From Symbiodinium sp. CCMP2592 (Eukaryota; Sar; Dinophyceae; Suessiales; Symbiodiniaceae), in contig CAJNDT010000146.1 in the NCBI GenBank assembly GCA_905221615.1, positions 137,001-201,000 on the forward strand: a DNA stretch of 64,000 nt. Reading direction: 5' to 3'. Below the pieces are notes generated by a model. It made no database searches. It was not told the origin of the DNA and worked only from the letters and a program-made list of their open reading frames with translations. Below, piece by piece: positions 46,186 to 64,000 of this stretch (the stretch's first letter is position 1; every line of letters begins with the position of its first letter). A program made the translations under genes and the position numbers.

Positions 46186-46945
46186 GGTAACCCTCTGGAC
46201 CTGAACCGCTTTGCTCTGGTCCTTGAGCCCGACATGTCATGCAGGAGCAGAAGAAACTAAAATTATCCCCAGTAGCCAAAAAAAGCACCGAACCCTTCCT
46301 TGCCCAGGGCGTCTGGAGGTGAATGCCTTTCACTGCAGCGCGGCTTTGGCCTCGATGGCTCCTCGGCGCTCCGTTTCATGCCGCCCTGGATGGCTTGGGG
46401 TCTCGGTTAAATATAGGGGGGGCCTTAACTTAGTGGCTGTAAAACAAACTTTTCAACTTTTGCCGGGAATGGGTTGTATGATGCCTAGGATAGCAATAAG
46501 AGAGGGTTGCTGGGGGGGTTAGAGAGGTAAAGAAGGGGATGGGAAACTAGTAGAGGTGATTCTCAAGGTCTTGTTTTGGGTTTTTAAATGGGGGTGTATG
46601 GGTTTGAAATAGGCCGCATAGCTGTAGTGCTCGAACGTAGTCTGACGACGTCACAACAAGCCTTGAACTTTACCCCTCCTCCCTAAACCCAAAATGTATA
46701 TCCTTACACCTTCAGACACCTAAACCCTGGAAAGCTGAAGCCCATCACCCTCAACCATGGCACCACCTTAAACCCTATCGTCCCAGATCCCTACTAACTA
46801 CAGACTCCCATCACCAGTGCCATAGGCCTTCAAGCTTCGTAGTCCACCCACCCTAAAGCCTAAAACCGTAACCTCGACCCTAATAATTTGAACCCAATGA
46901 CACTAGACCCGAGAGGCTAACAGCTGAATGCCACCACACTAATCC

Positions 46946-49106: not shown

Positions 49107-50777
49107 ATGACATCGTCTTCGGGTTCCTCTTCTTCGTCATCGACAAGGTCATCCTCGTATTCAACCTCCTCGTCTGACAGTGACGTTCAGGAGCAGCCTG
49201 AGAGGCCTGAGTGTTAGCCGTCGTGTCGTTGACAATTGAATGATGTGTCCTGGCAGGCAGCAGCGAAAGAAGCCGAACGTTCGAAAGCGTCGGCAAAACC
49301 GCGAAAGGCTGGCCCGAGAAGCTGCCGGGAGCAGCAATGACCACCTGAGGTTGGTACCTGCTGCTGGGAGCAGCCTGAGGGAGGCTGAGAAGAAGGAGGA
49401 CAAGAAAGACGAGAAGAAGTCTGAAAAGAAGGACGACAAGAAGGAGGCGAAGCTGCCTGACAAGAAGGTGGAGAAGAAGGAGGACGAGAAGAAGCCTCCA
49501 AAGGCGGAGGATGAAAAGAAGGCAAAGGAAAAGAAGGATGACAAGAAGGCTGAGGAGGCGGCTAAGAAAAAGGAAAAGAAGGATGACAAGAAGGTCGAGG
49601 AGGCGGCTCAACAGAAGAAAAAGGAAAAAAAGGACGACAAGAAGGCTGAGGAGGCGGATGACAAGAAGAAAAAGGAAAAAAAGGATGACAAGAAGGCTGA
49701 GGAGGCGGATGAAAAGAAGAAAAAGGAAAAGAAGGACGACAAGAAGGCCGAGGAGGTGGAGGAAAAGAAGAACCAGGAAAAGAAGGAAGCGGCTGAGGAG
49801 TGGGCTTTGCACCGCCGCAAGGCTGAGGAAGCCGTGAGGAACCTGAAGAGGCCTTTGACGCCTGAGAAAGGGCACGGCAAGGGCAAGAAGGGCCGGAAGG
49901 GGACGGGGAAGGGGAAAGGAGAAGAGAAGAAGGAAAAGAAGAAGAAGGATAAGAAAAAGAAAGATAAGAAGAAGTCCAAAAAGGACAAGAAAGACAAGAA
50001 GAAAAAAAAGGAGAAAAAGGAAAAGGATGAAAAGAAGCATTTGTTGACTGATCCTGAGTCCAGAAGATATTGTGGCATGTCCTTTGAGGCTTCTTGGCTG
50101 ATTTAACTCCTCTGAGTTTTCGTGGCATGTGTGAGTTCGAGCGTCTGTCGGACAGCAAGGAGCTGCTGTCGATGTACGTCTCGCGTGCCTCGGTCCTGGT
50201 CTTTCTTCGAGACTCGGTGAAGGCCGGGCTTCGTGACCTTATTAAACCCTGTGCCTGAGAAGCCAGTTCATCAATGTGTCGGCAGGGAGCACCGGACCGC
50301 TTCACGGAGGGGACGTTCAACTGTCCGGTGCCTGAGAATGCCGACCACAAGGAGACCCTGAAGCAGGCGGGAGTCTGCACCTGGCATTCTGTTGTTTTTG
50401 AATTTGTCGCAGCGCACATCTGGGCCAGGTGTTGATACACAGGGTGATACACCAGAGGGCCTACCTGAGATGGTGGGCTCTCAACAGCCCTGCGGCATTC
50501 CACAATGCAATGAGGACGGCAGGCCTCCACGAGCCTTGGACTGCATCCACTCTTGCTCCATTTCGTCATTATGCTACATTTCGTGTTTTCCGTCATTGAC
50601 ATTGAACGTCATCTCACTGAGGTGCCTGACATCTATGACCTCTCAGCTCCTGGCAATGGGCCTCCTCCTCCTCCACCACCACCACCGCCTCCGCCAGCGA
50701 CTGACCCTCCGAAGGGAAAGGGCAAGGCCGGCAAGGCTAAGGGGCCTGAGCCCAAAAAAGGCGGCAAGTCCGGGTAG
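49107..50777 (+). CDS. Ser-rich/Lys-Glu-rich protein, six exons, ultrashort introns
   Basis: Proposed exons are 49107-49210, 49257-50078, 50117-50252, 50286-50428, 50458-50584 and 50622-50777, joining to 496 codons including TAG. Introns are 46, 38, 33 (GC donor), 29 and 37 nt, all ending in AG. Retention of any one meets an in-frame stop within or just after it. The start ATG has context GAAGCCATGA. The protein has a Ser-rich acidic N-terminus (MTSSSGSSSSSSTRSSSYS), a basic patch (RKKPNVRKRRQNRERLAR) and about 200 residues of KKDDKKAEEAD-type repeats. A Gly-Lys linker and a globular-looking region (CEFERLSDSKELLSMYVS...) follow, then a Pro12 run and a basic tail. The composition suggests a nuclear or nucleolar protein (inference). 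No domain family recognised. Confidence 0.7.
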
Positions 50778-51474
50778 GCCAAACCCTAAATTCTAAACCC
50801 TATCTAAACCCTACATGTGTCAGCCTGATCTACCTGGCCATTCCGCCTGATTTTCATGCCTCCGTCTCCTGGGGTGCCCTCTAAATGGCGGGCCCACTGC
50901 AACAGCTTGATCTCCGGGGTGCGGCGGCAAAAAGAAGAGTCGAGTTCACTGCACAACTTTGCCAGTTTGTCTTTAAAAGTTTCGTGCACAGAGCCATGAC
51001 TGCTTTTGGGAAGGACTCCTCCTTCTGTTTCGTCTGGGCAGCTGCGGCCTGAGCATACCGGTGCCCCTGCAGTGCCTGGAATCGGAAATCCATGAACATC
51101 TGGTTCAGGTGCTTTCGTGATCATCTTTCACTTTGCCTTCGGTTCCTCTGGCTTTGGACTTAAATACCCTGCCTCCCATGACTGCCCACTTGCGACACGA
51201 CAGGTCTCGGATGCCTGACCGTGTGGACGAGCTGCCGTCGTTGCAGAGTCTGTGGGGGACCCGGTCAAGTGGATTCGCCAGCCTGGATTTGGGCATGTGT
51301 TTGATGCCATGCGTGCTGCCTTTAACTTTTTTCCTGTGTGCTGTGGATCAAGATCACTGTCACATGGCATGGCAAGCCAGGGTTGTGGCAGCTTGCAGGT
51401 CTGATTTATGAATGTTGGGTTAAACCCTTAGGGTAGGCCAAAACTTTTGGGGAGAAGGGCTGATCGTCGCCGCC

Positions 51475-51906
51475 ATGGCACTCTCGGAGCAGGAGAAGGA
51501 CCATGCTCTGTGGGCAAGCCTGATGCGGAGGCTTGCCATGGAGGACAGGATGAACATCAGTGCACTGCCTCGTCGCTCGGCTGAAGTGGGATGTCTGAAA
51601 TGTAAACTGACCATGGCCAATGACTTCCTGCCTTACTTAGGCAGACCACCGCGGCTTGACAACCAGGTCTTTGCTTTGTCCCAGTGGTACGACGAGCATG
51701 AGGCTGAGGCCGACCGGGCAGCAATCCGGCTGCATCTTTAGTGCCCTCTGGTCCGAGTCCGATGTGAAGCACCATGCTGAAAGGCAAGGGCGAATGCTAA
51801 GGTGCACTCTGTTTTGCATGACCGTGCGCCTGACCTCCTCTGGGTTTGCTGCAAGTGCGGCGTCGACATGGCAGCCAAAGCTGAGTCTCGGCTGCAGCTA
51901 CAATGA
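51475..51906 (+). CDS. Small CxxC-containing protein, probable two exons
   Basis: ATG 51475 sits in GCCGCCATGG, an excellent eukaryotic start. Exon 1 (to about 51717) reads MALSEQEKDHALWASLMRRL... and includes CLKC. A GC-AG intron of 66 nt (51718-51783; a donor at 51721 is equally in frame) joins to DRARANAKVHSVLHDRAPDL then LWVCCKCGVDMAAKAESRLQ and TGA 51904, about 121 residues. Two CxxC pairs could form a zinc site (inference). The frame inside the proposed intron also looks partly protein-like, so the splice model is uncertain. Confidence 0.5.
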
Positions 51907-51928
51907 CAATTAAATGTGATGTGCCAGC

Positions 51929-52228
51929 ATGCGAAAAGTTCCAGCGGTGCATGTTGCATCCAAGGGCCTGGTCTCATTGCTGCTGCACCCGCACCCGAAT
52001 GCCCCGGCGTATGCTCATCGAACCACCGTCCTTCTGACACGTGGCTCGTCTTTCAACTTTGGGGGGTATCTTTTCTGGAAGCTGTTCATTGCCTGAACTT
52101 CAGGCGAGTGGGTGTGGGACAGCAGCTTCACCAACGTCACCGCCTCCAAGTTGGTGATGAAGCACGTCAGGGAGAAACTTGTTGGCTGTATAGTAAACTT
52201 TTCCATTTTGGGGGTTCTTTATAACTAA
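51929..52228 (+). CDS. Hypothetical protein, two exons
   Basis: From ATG 51929, exon 1 reads MRKVPAVHVASKGLVSLLLH then PHPNAPAYAHRTTVLLT. A 63-nt GT-AG intron (52041-52103) containing an in-frame TGA joins to REWVWDSSFTNVTASKLVMK, HVREKLVGCIVNF, ending at TAA 52226 (78 residues). It may instead be a continuation of the preceding gene, 23 bases upstream. No family recognised. Confidence 0.45.
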
Positions 52229-52304
52229 TGTAGTCGATTCTGACACTTTCAACTTTTATTCCCTGACTGAGGAAGTCTGACTGGCTTCAAACCGAGCACA
52301 GCTC

Positions 52305-52674
52305 ATGGCGAAAAATTCGCCAGTCTGTTCGAGACCGTACAGCTGGAGAAGGCCCCCGTCCAGTGCCTGACCCCACAGACCCATGGTCTGACAATGACAA
52401 CAATGACGTGTCTGAGAACGACGACACGGGGACCTTGGGGACCGTGCCTGCTGACACGGGCAGCACCAGGGCATGGGCGTCTGAGCAGCAGCCGTCGTCT
52501 GACAATCAGGAGCGGCAGCAGTGGCGGTCGTCTGACAATCAGGAGCGGCAGCAGTGGGCGTGGTCGTCTGACAATCAGCAGTGGCACGGCTCGGGCTGGC
52601 GTTGGCGATCGTGGTCTGAGTGGCAGGAGGCGGCCGACGGAGACAGCGACGAAGATTCCAGGGCATGGGCCTGA
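52305..52674 (+). CDS. Asp/Ser/Gln/Trp-rich repeat protein, 5' structure unclear
   Basis: The last exon (frame from 52363) is an acidic, Trp/Gln-rich tail with repeats of SSDNQERQQW (about 33-bp units at 52497-52590) ending in DSDEDSRAWA and TGA. Upstream, a different frame from about 52310 reads EKFASLFETVQLEKAPVQ and looks coding, so an intron must lie between about 52323 and 52380. Several very short solutions keep the frame. Product unknown. Confidence 0.45.
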
Positions 52675-52679
52675 CTGAG

Positions 52680-54240
52680 TCTGAGGCTGCCTGATGACTG
52701 AGGGGTGAGTGGTCTTCCGCCTGAGATGAAAAATGCACTTTGCAGTGCGGGCGTGTACTGAGTCACTGAGTACTGCGTCTGACATGCATTGTGAGAGATT
52801 TGCCGTGCCCGAGGTTGGGTCGGATGTCATGCTCGGCGATGGCCTCTCGCTCAGACGGGCATGTCCACATGTGCAGCTGCCTGGCCTGATACTTTTGTTT
52901 TTGTCAGGGCACAGCACGACTTCCTGGTGGCATTGGGCAGGCGAGTCTTACTTATCTTGTTCTTGATTACAAGAAGCATTTTGCATCCGGAGGAGCTGGC
53001 CTGACATTGGATTGGGAGGGATACGTCGACTCAGACCAGGCCTTGAACTCAGATGCCTTATCACTGGTCGCACCTGTCCCACTGTCTAAATTGCTGTTGC
53101 TTCCGTACTTCTCGTCCAGTTGTCGATTGAAATGAATCCTTGTCAGTTGTGTCACATGCGGACTTTCTGGCACACGTGGTCTTGGCCGAAGTTGGAATCA
53201 TCTTTGCTCATGCAATGACTGCTGCTGCTGCTGCCGCCACTTGACTCCGGTGCTGTTACTGGTGCTGCTGCTTGGGGGGGCGGTCACCGGCGGACGGGGC
53301 CAAACCTTGGACCGGAAGAGGGGGCTGCACGGAACTAGTGAGAACAGCCTTTCAACTCAGACACTTGCCGCTGGTCGCACACTTGATGCTTCTGCACTTG
53401 TTGACTGAATTCAATTCCTGGACTCCTCGTTGTAACATGTTTCTGTACCGAAGCCTGATTCCGGACTTCGTGGCTCGTGCGGAATCATCTTTGCACATAG
53501 ACGACTGCTTCTGCTTCTGCTGCCGCCGCTTGACTCTGCTGCTGCTTGGGGCCGGGCGGAGGCAGTTCGGGTTCGGGGCTGCGTTTGTTCTTTGTGCTGA
53601 TTCGCTGACCCACCGTCACACCTGCAGGGCTACTAGCCTGCGGTCTGCCAATGGCGGCAGACAATGAGGGGGGGGGACCTGTCATTGTCCGGTGGAGTTA
53701 TTGCCGGAGCATACCAGGTCATCGGAAGCCATGAATCTGCAAGTATGGGATAAGCCTGCGGCGTGGCAGTGGCGGGACCCAGAAAGGCAGAAACTTCCGA
53801 CCCCCTTCATTTTGGCGGAACCCACCTTGGCCGAGTGGGGGTGAATCTGTCTGGCATTCTCGGGCAAACACCGGTGTTTGAAAAGACCATTGGGGAGGCC
53901 GCCTAGTCGTCTGTCTGATTGACTTGCTTGCTTTCGTGGCGTGTTTTTTGTGCTGTGGCCCTTGCGGTTGGAGGCGGAATTGAGCATGCCTGGCGGGTCT
54001 ACTCTTATGTATCAAACTCGATCCCAACATGTTGTAGCCATCAGGGCAGAAGCCTGCTGAGGTGAGGGGATTCTGCTTGATTGCGACCGTTTCATAATCT
54101 GCTGTCATGTCTTGCATCGTGGCCATGCATTGCTGCAATCGAACGAAATCCAGTGGCATGCAAACAAATCGAAAGCTAGAAAGATGGGTAATCGTCGCTG
54201 CAATCATTGGGTACCTTCAGTGCAGCACTTGTACGTGGAA
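52680..54240. other. Non-coding region with a diverged duplication
   Basis: No convincing gene. A segment at about 53042-53230 is repeated in diverged form at about 53349-53545. Shared landmarks are C.TTGAACTCAGA, CTGGTCGCAC, GGAATCATCTTTGC and a CTG/CCG triplet stretch ending CGCTTGACTC. The offset drifts from 307 to 287 bases. Confidence 0.6.
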
Positions 54241-54327
54241 TAATAGGGTTCTACTATGCAGTCGTTATTCATAAAGGAAAGAATTTAAAAATAGTAACTT
54301 GGTATTTCAGTCATAGTTTCTCTTAGA

Positions 54328-56090
54328 TTCAGTGCAATTACGGCTGTCTTCAGTGCGGCATTGTTGCACTGGAGACGAAGTATAATGCACCTGAAGTGTA
54401 ACTAGTGTAACATATTAATAGTAAATTTGTATTCAGTGCAATTACGGCTCTCTTCAGTGCAGCATTGTTGCACTTAAGACGAAGTGTAATGCACCTAATA
54501 CAGATTCCAATATGGAGTGCAATATTATTTTATTACTAGTCGATGTGTATTCAATGCAATTACGACAAAGCGGATCCCTATGCAACGACGGCTAGCAGCA
54601 CTTAGAAAAACAAAGTCCAGTATGGACATTAGCAATATATTATAACTGTTGGATTTGAATTCAGTGCAATCAGAGTTGTCTTCAGTGCAGCAGTATTGCA
54701 CTGAAGACGCACTATTATGCACCTAATAGAAACTCTAGCAGGGAGTGCAGTTATTCTAATATATTAATAGAGGATTTGTATTCAGTGCAATTACGGCTCT
54801 CTTCAGTGCAGCATTGGTGCACTGAAGACAAAGTATAATGCACCTAATACAGATTCCACTATGGAGTGTAACCAGTGTAGTATTTCAAAATGAATTTGTA
54901 TTCAGTGCAATTACAGCTGTCTTCAGTGCAGCATTGGTGCACTGAAAACAAAGTATAATGCATCTAATACAGATTCCATTATGGAATGCAATTAGTGCTT
55001 TATATTTGTTTATGGATTTCGAAGGCAATGGCGTGCATGGAACAAACACTCCAGTTGGACTGCAAAAAATGTAATTTTATTAGTATTTTAAAGACTACTA
55101 GCTTTGTATTCAATACAGCTATGGAATGCAATTAGCAATTTTCTAATATGGAATTTGTTTGTCTTCAGTGCAATTACAGTTGTTTTCAGTGCAACCTTGT
55201 TGCATTGAAAACAAAGTATTATGCACCTAATATAAATTCTATTATGGAATGTAATTAGGGAAATATATTAATAGTGGGTTTGTATTCAGTGCAATTACAG
55301 TTGTTTTCAGTGCAACATTGTTGCATTGAAGACAAAGTATTATGCACCTAATATAAATTCCATTATAGAATGTAATTAGGGAAATATATTAATAGTGGGT
55401 TTGTATTCAGTGCAATTACGGTTATCTTCGGTGCAGCATTGTTGCACTGAAAACGAATCATTATGCACCTAATACAAACTCTATTATGGATTGTAATTAT
55501 TGCAACAAAAAAGTTTAAAACAAAAGAACAAAGGCAATGGCAGCTTTCGTGCAATAAAAAGAATAATATGCATTTGATTCAAGCATCGAATAGAATTATT
55601 GTAATCCATTAGGAGTTGGTTGTATTCAGTGCAATTACAGCTGTCTTCAGTGCAGCATTGCTGCACTGAAAACAAAGTATAATGCACCTAATACAGATTC
55701 CATTATGGAGTGTAAAGATAGTTATACTGGATTTGTAATCAGTGCAATCACCGCTGTCTTCAGTGCAGTATTGGTGCACTGAAGACAAAGTGTAATGCAC
55801 CTAATACAGATTCCATTATGGAGTGTCATTAGCTATATACAAAAGGACTTTTGTTTTCAGTGCAATTACAGCTGTCTTCAGTGCAGCATTGGTGCACTGA
55901 AGACAAAGTATAATGCACCTAATACAGATTCCACTATGGAGTGTCATTAGCAATATACTCAAGGGCTTTTGTTTTCAGTGCAATTACAGCTGTCTTCAGT
56001 GCAGCACTGTTGCACTGAAGACAAAGTATAATGCACCTAATACAGATTCCACTATGGAGTGTAATTATTGCCGCATAAAAAAATTGCATC
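54328..56090. repeat. Hairpin satellite, about 15 units of 118-121 bp
   Basis: AT-rich units begin with TTCAGTGCAATTA. Recognisable starts are 54328, 54432, 54550, 54660, 54781, 54901, 55164, 55285, 55406, 55625, 55738, 55856 and 55975, with two eroded units in the gaps at 55020-55160 and 55500-55620. Nearly every unit carries GTCTTCAGTGCA, a 7-base loop, then TGCACTGAAGAC: a 12-bp stem (for example 55874-55904). After it comes a conserved tail, AAAGTATAATGCACCTAATA, and CAGATTCCATTATGGAGTG. Copies differ by point changes, several of which keep pairing. The base composition is strikingly different from the GC-rich genes on both sides. Confidence 0.95.
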
Positions 56091-59508: not shown

Positions 59509-62284
59509 ATGGCTCCCAAAACTGGCCGGACGAGTGGGGCCAAGAAGGCGGCCAAGGCAACTGCCAAAGCTAAGGCTGAGGCCACGGCGGCTGAGGCTGC
59601 CGAGGTGGAGTCTGGGGACTTTGCCATGGAGACCGGGCGTGAAGCCGTGAAAGAGGCCCTGGACTTTTTGAAGAAGAAGAAGCTCTTTCCGGCTAAGGCG
59701 GAGAAGGTCGGCACTCACTCCATTCTTCCAGATGCCTGGCAGGGCTCGAGCCTGAAAGAGGCCGGCTGGCTTTAGATTGTTAAGAAGTAAGACTGACTTG
59801 AGATACCCTTTTGGCGGTTCGGTCTCGTCTGACAGGCCTCCACATTCTCAGCGAGCCTGAAGGACGTTTCTGTGGAGACCCTGGAGGTGCCACCGCCTGA
59901 GGTGCTGTCTGAAGCGGCCGAGTATTGGTTCGAAGGGAGGTCTGATCAGACCTCCCTTTTCGTGTCGGCGACGGTGACGTCTGATGAGACCAAGTCAGGC
60001 GAGATTGTGCTGTCGCCTGAGGACCATACGAAGGTCGCGGCTCTGGTATGGGCCTTCGGCAAGGCGGCGGCTTCGTCTGACAGCGACCTCTGTGAGAAGT
60101 ACCGCCGCCTGAGCAGCCGCATCGTGATCTCCATGGTGCGTGGCAAGGCGTCTGACCAGGCAGGGACCGTGGTCAGTCTGATCCAGGCATCTGAGGACAT
60201 CGGCAAGAAGGCTATGGAGTGTTCCAATGCGATGCCGTTCAACCTCGCCTCGCGTCTGACGAGGACCCCGGCCGGGGTTTAGTAGTGACTGTCCCATTGC
60301 CAGGATCCGTAGTAGTGACTGGCTTCTTGCCAGGATCCGGGCCGCCTTGTCAGCACAACACAAGGCCTCCACTCACGAGGAGGTGTTCTTGTTGTTGAAG
60401 AACATCCGCTGGAACGGCGAAGCCTACAAGGCCCGGGATTCCTGGCCTGAAACTCTTAAAACCGAAGCCCTGAACCCGACAGGTGAAGACATCTGACCAG
60501 GTGCAAAAGCTCACCACTATGCTTGACAAGACGAAGGCGGCCGGCATGACTGAGTCGATGAAGGCGTGCCAGTATGTGAATAATTCGACCACGTGGTTCG
60601 GCAAGTGGAGCATCGTCACTCGCGTGCACCTCGTCCTATGAGACAAGAATCTCAGCACACACACACACACACTGCATGCCGTCAGATACCAAGGGTCAAC
60701 AGCTTGAAGTCCAAAGAGGAGCAGCGTTTCGTCATGTCGCTCATCTGTCAGGTCCTTGCCTCAGCAGCCACTGTCGAACCTCAGATCTTCTTGGAAGTTC
60801 TGCCCAGGAGATGCGGGAGGACAGCAGCCTGAAGGACCATTTGGGTGTGTCCCTGTCGACCAACACCCACATGCGTGACTTGAACAGGGACCAGGCGATG
60901 CAAGCGACAGGGATGCTGCATCTTCGCTTCGTCGTGCTGGAGCGGCTGAGCCATCTGCCCATCCCGGACGATGCGGATGACAAGAAGACGGCCATGGATT
61001 TTCAGAAGTCTCTGCAGAGGTGTCTGAATCCGAAGGAGTGGGCTCAGCAAGGCGGCTTGGTATCCGTCGCGGCCTTCAGCGAGCCGCCGTACTGCAGTCT
61101 GAGTAAAAGGATTGCAGGAATGCTCCGTGGTGATGACGATGAGCTCTTCAGCACTGCTGTCACTTCCGGGCAGAAGGCGGGTCCGTGGTTGTGACAGTGA
61201 CATGGCTTTTGCAAGCCAGAAATGATCAGCTGCCAGGAGGAGTTTGGACCCATCCTGGAGCTGCTGACCAGGTACAGCGACGAGTGGAAGATGAAATTGG
61301 GCCGTGTGAAGCCTGAGCCGCCGCTTGAGACCAAGCCTTCGCGTGAGCTGCTGCCCGAGACGGATCCGACGACTGATACGTCTGGGACTGGGACGACTCG
61401 CACGGCTGAACAACTCCGCGAAGTGCAGCTCAAGCGGGCGGTGGAGGCTGGAGTCTGTGTACAGTGTTTGCAGCGAAGCTCGTGTCCTCCGTTTGCACGA
61501 CAGGAGGAAATGGCCTTCTACATTCACTTCTACCAAAGCGACATCAGGAATCCTTCCGCTGCCTGGGCTGATGCTCTGAAGCAACATCAGCTCCTTCAGA
61601 AGGACCGTGTCCGATGCATAGACCAGGCTCTTGTCAGATCTTCTTTGGTTGCTTGACAGGCTGAGCCGGTGTTATTCATCTTCGACTCCTCGCTGGTCGC
61701 TGAAAACGGAGGCTACAGCCGCGTGCACAACGTGTACCAGCGACCGGCCGTCTTCGAGCGTGGCCTGTACGACAACTGCTTCCGAGTGTTCGAGGCGGCT
61801 TCCAAGGACGAGGACAGAGACAGAAGCTTGGTGCTTGGATTCAATTGTTTTCCGTGCATGACAGGACCGCTGGCTGACCTTTGATAGCGGCGTGCAGAAG
61901 GCCTCGAACACCATCCTCAAGTCTTTCAGGAATCATGGCTCGACGCCCCAGAGCATTATTCTGATCGGAAGCGAAGAAAGTGTTCAAGGGCGGAAAGACT
62001 ACTTGCGGTCTGCGTGGCTTGGCCGCATGTTCTTGTGTTTGACTGCAGTTTCCTTTTTTGGCTTGGCCGCCTGTTCTTGTGTTGACTGCAGTTCATGCTT
62101 CCAGCCAAGGGAGGAGAGGAACTGCAAACGGCGGAAGACGGGAACCGCTGGAAGTCTCATCAGCATCGCCGGGGCCAGGGAGACAATGTACTTCGGGTGC
62201 AAGTCTGACCCCCTGCCTGCCAAAGAGCACAAATGGCTGGCGACTGATGGCGTGGTGAGCACCGCCTGTCCTGTCTCGGACTGA
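59509..62284 (+). CDS. Large hypothetical protein with many ultrashort introns
   Basis: ATG 59509 (AAAGCCATGG) opens MAPKTGRTSGAKKAAKATAK, an H1-like Ala/Lys stretch. Frame-keeping introns: 59761-59835 (75, GC donor) or 59707-59835 (129); 60277-60303 (27) plus 60309-60333 (25), or one of 82 nt from 60252 (GC); 60431-60482 (52, GC); one ending 60685 (53, 62 or 71); 60752-60807 (56); 61159-61215 (57); 61633-61659 (27) or 61609-61659 (51); 61831-61864 (34). Retaining them leads to stops. Exons read EEVFLLLKNIRWNGEAYK, EEFGPILELLTRYSDEWKMK and ENGGYSRVHNVYQRPAVFER, convincing protein without a recognised domain. A further 84-nt intron (62008-62091) is possible. The 3' end is uncertain: a GTGAGC donor at 62255 could continue to 62340. 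Confidence 0.6.
60280..60340 (+). repeat. 30-bp tandem duplication carrying intron ends
   Basis: TAGTAGTGACTG....TTGCCAGGATCCG occurs twice head to tail (from 60280 and 60310). Each copy ends in a pyrimidine-rich TTGCCAG|GATCC acceptor, and with an upstream GT each can be read as an intron of 27 or 25 nt. Confidence 0.85.
62017..62093 (+). repeat. 43-bp tandem duplication of an acceptor-like segment
   Basis: GGCTTGGCCGC.TGTTCTTGTG followed by TTGACTGCAGTT occurs at 62017-62050 and 62060-62093, the second copy one T shorter. Each ends in TTGACTGCAG, a typical branch/acceptor arrangement for this gene cluster. Confidence 0.85.
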
Positions 62285-62307
62285 GACACGTCTGGGAGCA
62301 AAGTTTA

Positions 62308-62451
62308 ATGACGGAGCTGGGGATAGGGAATCGTTGCTCTGAGGTGCTGCCGAACGTGCCCTTGCCTTCGCCTGAGAGCCTCATCCGGGTGACGGTGAGC
62401 CAGAAGAAGGAGGCCAGGAAGTCGGATATGTGCGAATTCATCCTGCTGTAA
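62308..62451 (+). CDS. Small open frame or terminal exon
   Basis: From ATG 62308 the frame reads MTELGIGNRCSEVLPNVPLP then SPESLIRVTVSQKKEARKSD MCEFILL and TAA. Protein-like, but a different frame (FNDGAGDRESLL, stop 62338) would follow from the GTGAGC donor at 62255. Whether this is a separate gene or a last exon is unresolved. Confidence 0.35.
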   Translation: MTELGIGNRCSEVLPNVPLPSPESLIRVTVSQKKEARKSDMCEFILL

Positions 62452-62557
62452 TAATCGGTCAGGTCATCCCTTTGGTGTGTGGAAAGGGTGTGACCGACAA
62501 CGGCGGCCAGGTGCAGGGCTGAGCATGTTGGGACGGCTCAGGCAGCACTAGTTATAG

Positions 62558-63119
62558 TTTCGGCCCCGGGAGGTGGCACCGGCTGAGCACGTGGAGGACA
62601 CCGACACAGTCCCTCTGGTGCACTTCGAGAGGAGCTGCTGGCTGTGTCGCAAGTTTGAGTCCATTGTCTGGGCCGGTGAATTGAATTGGCAGGAGCCCAC
62701 AGGTGTACCGGATGCTGCTGCACACGGTCTCGCCCATTGCCTGTGTCGTGAACTTTTCTCCGGGGTCGGGGTGCCTGAGCGTCGTCGCCGCAGAACAGCG
62801 GGTGCCCTGCATCAACGTGGTGAGGACGCCTGAACAACGGATGATGCTCCAGAGCATCATCCGGCAGGAGCTGGCTGGTCGCGTCAAGAATGCCAACGAC
62901 CAGCGATTCTACCGCGTGCCTGAGCCGCAGAGGGCTGAGCCTGAGATGCCGCCTGTCTCGACAGCGGTTGCCTCGCCCGCGGTTCCGGTTCCCCCGCCTG
63001 CGACAACGACGGTGCCACCGCCTCAGACAACGACGGTGCCACCGCCTGAGAAAACCACGGATGTCTCGTCACCGTCTGGTGAGTCTGACAGCAGCTCAGG
63101 CGAGGACGTAGAAAAGTAG
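62558..63119 (+). CDS. Hypothetical protein with Pro/Thr-rich tail, 37-nt intron
   Basis: Exon 62558-62665 (after TTATAG) reads EVAPAEHVEDTDTVPLVHFE RSCWLCRKFESI. A 37-nt GT-AG intron (62666-62702) joins in frame to VYRMLLHTVSPIACVVNFSP ... INVVRTPEQRMMLQSIIRQE LAGRVKNANDQRFYRVPEPQ. A low-complexity tail with PPPATTTVPPPQTTTVPPP follows, ending SSGEDVEK and TAG 63117. A possible first exon (MLGRLRQ at 62524) is not connected. Acidic Ser tail; family unknown. Confidence 0.55.
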
Positions 63120-63365
63120 AAGGCCATTTGGGTCCAGTCTGATGGAGCATTGCACTTTTAACCATGCAGCTGAAGCCTGAAGCACGTCCAGTTTGAGACG
63201 TGGACCCAGCAGATTGCACTTTTCGCCCTCAAGGATGGCAGACGAGGTAAAACACCCGAGGATTGCAGAAGTTAGTACGTGATCTGTCAAACAACATGGT
63301 GAAGGTGCGACTTGGTCAAATCTCTCAATATCCGCAATTTTTGTGCTCGGAGTCTGAGTGCCGCC

Positions 63366-64000
63366 ATGAAGCGGCCTGCCAAGAGGCAGGCGACCCAGCT
63401 GCAGAGAGCAGTCGCAGCTGGCGTCGTCAAGAAAGCCGTGAAGCCGTTCGCTTTATTTTGCCAGCAGCGTCGCCTGAGTCCACGAAAGGCGGCTAGTGCC
63501 TGGCGTGACTTGGGGGACAACGAACGAAAAGAATTCCTGGCGGCGTCCAGGCTTGGCTTCTCGAACCAACGGCAGGCAGCAGAGAAGGCAGGCGTTCGTC
63601 TGAGAAACTCTCAGCGAACCGACCCGCCTGTGGCACCTGAGCCTCTGTTGTCTGACCGTGCTCCGGACGACATCACCTTCGGCGACTACATCGTCTGTGG
63701 CTCTCAGGCCGGGGTTGGACAGGGCGGCTACGGCGGCATCATGAAAGTAAGGCACCGGGTTTCGCATCGCATCTATGCGGCCAAGGTCAGCAACACGAAT
63801 TTCCACCTGTCTGAGGAAGTCGCCTTGCTGAAGCAGCTGGCTCACGAGACCTTTCTGCCGTTGCTCGCAGAGTCGGTGGTGACTGAGGATGAGTTCGTTC
63901 CCGGCCAGATCTCCTTCATGATCATGCCTTACGTGGCCGCGGGCTCCGTCCTGCATTACTTGCACAACGTTGGAGCTTTTGATGCTGAGAAGCAGTTGGC
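63366..64000 (+). CDS. HMG-box-like/protein kinase fusion (3' truncated by window)
   Basis: ATG 63366 lies in GCCGCCATGA; 211 codons run to the window end without a stop or needed intron. Residues about 24-62 (AVKPFALFCQQRRLSPRKAA SAWRDLGDNERKEFLAAS) have the KPxxxF...W..L...E+..F pattern of an HMG box. From about 101 a protein kinase domain begins: glycine loop GVGQGGYGGIMKV (116-128), the ATP-binding Lys in YAAK (140), the alpha-C Glu in LSEEVALLKQL (150 or 151) and hinge-like IMPYVAAGSVLHYLH (186-200). The catalytic loop lies beyond the window, so activity cannot be judged. The kinase N-lobe is a clear match; the HMG assignment is from pattern only. Confidence 0.75.
   Translation, partial: MKRPAKRQATQLQRAVAAGVVKKAVKPFALFCQQRRLSPRKAASAWRDLGDNERKEFLAASRLGFSNQRQAAEKAGVRLRNSQRTDPPVAPEPLLSDRAPDDITFGDYIVCGSQAGVGQGGYGGIMKVRHRVSHRIYAAKVSNTNFHLSEEVALLKQLAHETFLPLLAESVVTEDEFVPGQISFMIMPYVAAGSVLHYLHNVGAFDAEKQL

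What the first reader, a model, noticed from the sequence alone, without database searches (positions are those of the whole stretch)
49107..50777. Five ultrashort introns (29-46 nt) in one gene
Joining six exons across introns of 46, 38, 33, 29 and 37 nt gives a single 496-codon frame with sensible protein on both sides of every junction. Every intron, if retained, leads to a stop inside or just after it, a pattern known for tiny introns under nonsense-decay selection in ciliates. Introns this short are near the lower limit for eukaryotic spliceosomes and unlike the long introns usual in dinoflagellates. Each carries a TGA(C/T)-type word that could serve as branch site.
Basis: partly seen in the sequence, partly recalled or inferred. 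Interest (0 to 1): 0.88.

Follow-up and report, generated by a model that had tools for sequence, protein, structure and literature searches.

The report
Real short introns, mostly misplaced
This dinoflagellate-like gene does seem to carry five short introns, but its relatives in the same genome show that most of them lie elsewhere and are longer (about 46 to 91 bases) with the unusual GC-type splice sites already known from these algae, so it is an ordinary member of a known kind.

Summary
The five segments lie where stated and their removal gives the stated 496-codon frame. That alone means little: under similar loose rules 16,879 models fit the 734-nt C-terminal part, and 105 of 200 shuffles also give at least one. 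Paralogs in the same 1.1-Gb genome decide. Intron 1 (46 nt) is supported. The 29-nt 'intron 4' is coding DNA, conserved as protein in the four loci compared. 'Intron 3' has the right acceptor but, judged by intronless relatives, a donor 30 nt too far downstream. 'Intron 2' and 'intron 5' are wholly or partly misplaced. The revised model has six exons, 445 residues and introns of 46, 71, 63, 62 and 91 nt, all ending AG|G, three with GC donors. Exons 1, 3, 4 and 5 have equal lengths in the paralog; no intron has. Exons 3-5 show pN/pS 0.38 in frame, 1.26 and 1.39 out of frame. This is the described Symbiodinium splice pattern. The introns are short beside published medians, but neighbouring kinesin exons here suggest 74-121 nt. 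No RNA was available; the intron 5 boundaries remain uncertain.

The parts
49107..49210 (+). Exon 1 (104 nt), Ser-rich start of the protein
   Evidence: 104 nt without gap in paralog L010; differences by codon position 15, 11, 25
49211..49256 (+). Intron 1 (46 nt), GT-AG followed by G
   Evidence: Same ends and kept frame in L010, 64 nt there; third of 800 junction pairs, 125 against 127
49257..50088 (+). Exon 2 (832 nt), Lys-rich repeats, ends in ...GMSFE
   Evidence: Ends in SFE or TFE before GC in window, L010, C4778 and C757
50089..50159 (+). Intron 2 (71 nt), GC-AG followed by G
   Evidence: 82, 62 and 70 nt in L010, C4778 and C757; second of 391 junction pairs, 97 against 99
50160..50222 (+). 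Exon 3 (63 nt)
   Evidence: 63 nt, ungapped in L010; fused with exon 4 in C4778, C757 and C5162
50223..50285 (+). Intron 3 (63 nt), GC-AG followed by G
   Evidence: Best of 44 placements against the intronless C4778 peptide; same in L010, best of 21. Window against L010 alone ranks it fourth
50286..50366 (+). Exon 4 (81 nt)
   Evidence: 81 nt in L010 and C1232
50367..50428 (+). Intron 4 (62 nt), GC-AG followed by G
   Evidence: 49 nt in L010, 76 nt in C1232; first of 2190 junction pairs against L010; open frame at this place in C4778 and C757
50429..50530 (+).
   Evidence: Conserved peptide with LRWW in window, L010, C1232 and C4778; 102 nt in L010
50531..50621 (+). Intron 5 (91 nt, tentative), GA-AG followed by G
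50622..50777 (+). Exon 6 (156 nt with stop), Pro-rich and basic end
   Evidence: Similar Pro-rich, Lys-rich end in L010

Best explanation
The locus is one plus-strand gene of a dinoflagellate-like nuclear genome with six exons and five short spliceosomal introns (about 46, 71, 63, 62 and 91 nt). It encodes a 445-residue protein with a Ser-rich start, long Lys-rich repeats, an unnamed domain of about 80 residues and a Pro-rich, basic end. The introns are most likely removed by the ordinary major spliceosome with the relaxed 5' sites known in Symbiodinium (GT, GC or GA) and a 3' site AG followed by G. Shown here: open frame, conserved junction places, equal exon lengths, unequal intron lengths, and purifying selection on exons 3-5 between two paralogs. 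Inferred: transcription, actual splicing, type of spliceosome, lineage, and any role of the protein.
For: Exons 1, 3, 4 and 5 have equal lengths in window and L010 while all five introns differ (46/64, 71/82, 63/79, 62/49, 91/104). No gap openings in exons 1, 3, 4, 5; 2, 4, 2, 1, 2 in introns 1-5 with the interim intron 5. pN/pS 0.38 in frame against 1.26 and 1.39 out of frame, with stops; 54 of 79 residues kept against at most 41 in 2000 random placements. Intron 2 has counterparts of 62 and 70 nt in C4778 and C757. Acceptors AG|G 5 of 5 in window and in L010. GT, GC and GA donors and G after the acceptor are described for Symbiodinium (passage of PMC4083563).
Against: No RNA. P0001 reads through intron 2 and into intron 3. 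Introns 1 and 2 are more alike between the paralogs (39/46, 54/68) than introns 3-5 or synonymous sites. C4778 and C757 are open through the place of intron 4. The distant relatives have weak E-values, 0.002 to 0.18. L010 breaks its frame in an A-rich run of exon 2.
Confidence: 0.78

Rival explanations
1. One reading: five ultrashort introns of 46, 38, 33, 29 and 37 nt, spliced near the lower size limit.
For: The joined frame is open. Segment 1 is supported. In window against L010 alone its junction 3 scores 163, above 160 for mine.
Against: 29-nt segment is coding in the four loci compared and L010 has no AG at its end. Best ranks 69 of 391 (intron 2), 107 of 2190 (intron 4), 30 of 666 (intron 5). 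Junction 3 scores 90-93 against 106-109 with intronless relatives. Such models are common by chance.
Confidence: 0.03
2. A degenerate copy: no splicing of the 3' part, the frame changes are indels of a decaying gene.
For: Seven near-identical copies and one split copy; L010 has a frame break in exon 2; no RNA.
Against: In exons 3-5 no indels and pN/pS 0.38; C757 and C4778 stay open when their own AG|GC or AG|GA to AG|G stretches are removed.
Confidence: 0.1
3. Intron 2 is sometimes coding (retained or alternative exon), so the gene has four constant introns.
For: P0001 is open through it for 26 codons; 54 of 68 aligned bases are identical in window and L010.
Against: Stops or frame breaks there in window and L010; sequence of other length and kind there in C4778 and C757.
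Confidence: 0.05

Closest known systems
Spliceosomal introns of Symbiodinium / Symbiodiniaceae
   Same: GT, GC or GA at the 5' end, AG followed by G at the 3' end (passages of PMC4083563, and PMC11453091)
   Different: Shorter than the medians of 231-501 bp in a table passage of PMC7789003 (species matched through the mean lengths quoted)
Tiny introns of ciliates
   Same: Stops on retention
   Different: 46-91 nt here; the 15-35 nt class is recalled, not looked up; only listings of ciliate papers were seen
Introner elements of dinoflagellates
   Same: Occur in the same group (passages)
   Different: Intron 1 with this spacing occurs only in eight copies of this gene; introns 2-5 not tested

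Membership tests
Symbiodiniaceae-type spliceosomal introns | Donor GT, GC or GA | tested here: met
   GT, GC, GC, GC, GA in window and in L010; donors GT, GC and GA were also the only ones allowed in the scans
Symbiodiniaceae-type spliceosomal introns | Acceptor AG followed by G | tested here: met
   5 of 5 in window, 5 of 5 in L010; G was not required in the scans
Symbiodiniaceae-type spliceosomal introns | Removed from the mature RNA | not testable with these tools
   No transcripts held
Symbiodiniaceae-type spliceosomal introns | Host genome belongs to this family | tested here: inconclusive
   Genome unnamed; 1.098 Gb; lineage inferred from splice pattern and gene content
   Only intron 1 (46 nt); others 62-91 nt by homology
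Introner elements | Near-identical copies in unrelated genes | tested here: not met
   Intron 1 only: 8 hits, all in copies of this gene, control 0; the pattern's spacing excludes the 64-nt L010 version

The most novel reading that the evidence does not exclude
A gene family in a gigabase dinoflagellate-like genome keeps its introns at about 46-104 nt, mostly with GC donors, with introns 1 and 2 more conserved than synonymous sites. Such compact introns could mark genes spliced by intron definition with weak non-GT donors, and intron 2 might double as coding sequence.
Probability: 0.15. Interest if true: 0.45.

Novelty: new member of a known kind. Interest (0 to 1): 0.28.

Why it matters
It corrects a gene model and shows how easily tiny-intron models arise by chance. 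If RNA confirms the short GC-AG introns, this family, with paralogs that have and lack intron 3, is a compact natural test of how dinoflagellate spliceosomes define short introns with weak 5' sites.

Tried and rejected
Viral contigs: two weak short matches (L031, L032), not pursued. Rfam: nothing at the gathering scores. Pfam: for the 434-residue interim model only SR-25 at E 0.018, below its cut-off; for the conserved 79 residues nothing.

Rejected: removal of intron 2 between the direct repeats GTGGCATGT, my first idea and a join in the query; C4778 and C757 point to another junction. Not preferred: intron 5 at 50523-50646 (223 against 228); still used it. The pair scoring favours short introns, because conserved intron ends add score; I give more weight to intronless relatives. 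The intron 4 scan used a C1232 reference that I had joined at the same kind of site, so it is partly circular. Folding the introns showed nothing that I could use.

One search's alignment of copies was spoilt by one reverse-oriented locus (L005); one search replaced it. The kinesin survey used 49 of 89 matches, those on a contig and strand with more than one match; of 28 neighbouring pairs 8 counted as adjacent exons. It can only see short introns well.

Papers: passages only, of PMC11453091, PMC5029490, PMC4083563, PMC7789003, PMC8045281 and PMC7245778; listings. I make no claim that anything is absent from print.

Full report
WHAT IS THERE. The translations show a Ser-rich start, a long Lys-rich frame to 50106, and then a stretch in which no single forward frame stays open.

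IS IT MORE THAN CHANCE? I counted spliced frames through 50041-50774 with GT or GC donors, AG acceptors, introns of 25-50 nt, later exons of at least 60 nt and up to five introns. The real sequence allows 16,879 models; 105 of 200 dinucleotide shuffles allow at least one. With GT only it is 578 models and 74 of 200 shuffles; with introns of 20-75 nt, 139 of 200 shuffles. An open joined frame is thus weak evidence. The branch-word claim holds for four of five segments. Stops on retention occur with the revised introns too.

RELATIVES. The window lies in an unnamed assembly of 1,098,105,373 bases in 5383 contigs (G000). It holds seven full-length copies of this stretch at 99-100% identity, the window included, and one copy on C293 split by an insertion of about 2.4 kb. 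These are too alike to test introns. Informative are a diverged paralog on C2502 (L010, 67% over its main piece) and distant relatives found with a protein query: C757, C4778, C1232 and C5162 (E-values 0.002 to 0.18, weak by themselves, supported by exon order and ungapped alignment). The protein database gave one relative, P0001, of 151 residues.

REVISED MODEL. Exons 49107-49210, 49257-50088, 50160-50222, 50286-50366, 50429-50530 and 50622-50777; introns of 46, 71, 63, 62 and 91 nt; 445 residues. L010 has exons of 104, 900, 63, 81, 102 and 132 nt and introns of 64, 82, 79, 49 and 104 nt. So exons 1, 3, 4 and 5 are equally long in both and no intron is. With the interim intron 5, exons 1, 3, 4 and 5 have no gap openings, introns 1-5 have 2, 4, 2, 1 and 2, and exons 2 and 6 have 7 and 4. 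In exons 3-5 (79 codons) dS is 1.40, dN 0.29, pN/pS 0.38; shifted by one or two bases pN/pS is 1.26 and 1.39, with stops. Donors are GT, GC, GC, GC, GA and acceptors AG|G in both.

INTRON BY INTRON. Intron 2: exon 2 ends in SFE or TFE directly before GC in window, L010, C4778 and C757, and exon 3 follows AG|G; lengths 71, 82, 62 and 70 nt. P0001 reads straight through; I take that for an unspliced prediction. It is the best of 44 placements in the window and of 21 in L010. The intron instead ends at 50428, where AG|G stands in all four. Its donor at 50367 matches AG|GC in L010 (49 nt) and C1232 (76 nt) and is first of 2190 pairs against L010, second of 1470 for L010 against C1232, but 183 against 201 for window against C1232. 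C4778 and C757 are open through this place, so they may lack the intron or have it without a stop.

HOW IT WORKS. Most likely by ordinary major-spliceosome splicing with the relaxed 5' sites described for Symbiodinium, where GC is nearly as frequent as GT, GA is used too, and the acceptor AG is frequently followed by G (passage of PMC4083563). A review gives GC or GA donors for 25-74% of introns in Symbiodiniaceae and mean lengths of 505, 517 and 893 bp for three species (passage of PMC11453091); a table passage gives medians of 231, 297 and 501 bp for columns with those means (PMC7789003). In this genome neighbouring kinesin-domain matches give eight rough intron estimates of 74, 77, 83, 106, 112, 113, 115 and 121 nt, and C757 and C4778, read the same way, have further introns of 46-52 nt. 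The introns here are short but have company. That splicing happens at all is inferred.

THE PROTEIN. Ser-rich, Lys-rich, a conserved stretch of about 80 residues, Pro-rich and basic. No Pfam family passes its cut-off for the interim model. A nuclear, RNA- or DNA-associated role would suit the composition but is a guess.

AGAINST THIS READING. Introns 1 and 2 are more alike between window and L010 (39 of 46 and 54 of 68 aligned bases) than introns 3-5 (40/63, 20/49, 52/121) or synonymous sites; selection on splice signals or gene conversion could explain it, neither was tested. L010 breaks its frame in an A-rich run of exon 2. No RNA was available.

VERDICT. The ultrashort claim fails for four of five. 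New member of a known kind.

Noticed in passing
window 46428 rightwards (L035, L037, L038, L040): A near-identical duplicated stretch starts at 46428 in three and at 46425 in one of six fetched copies; its right end was not reached. On C2024 a copy of 60978-64000 is followed within about 650 bases by a second copy from 48381 on, so units lie in tandem there.
   Followed up: partly
window 50948-54279 against L033: Downstream of the gene the C2502 paralog is 96-97% identical, while the gene body is only 51-73% identical by exon, a sharp mosaic.
   Followed up: no
C293 copy (L034), at window position about 50029-50043: Insertion of about 2.4 kb in the Lys-rich exon; 15 bases of the window sequence are present on both sides.
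   Followed up: no
L062 1150-1430 (C4778): Three tandem 97-base units, each an exon piece plus an intron-like stretch ending in TTGCAG|GAG; the joined frame is open.
   Followed up: partly
window 54653-56067: Three arrays of a 118-121-base tandem repeat with TTCAGTGCA words.
   Followed up: no
G000, e.g. C5125:109945-110889 and C5147:170112-171065: Several kinesin domains are covered by one open frame over nearly the whole profile, as expected of intronless or retroposed genes.
   Followed up: no
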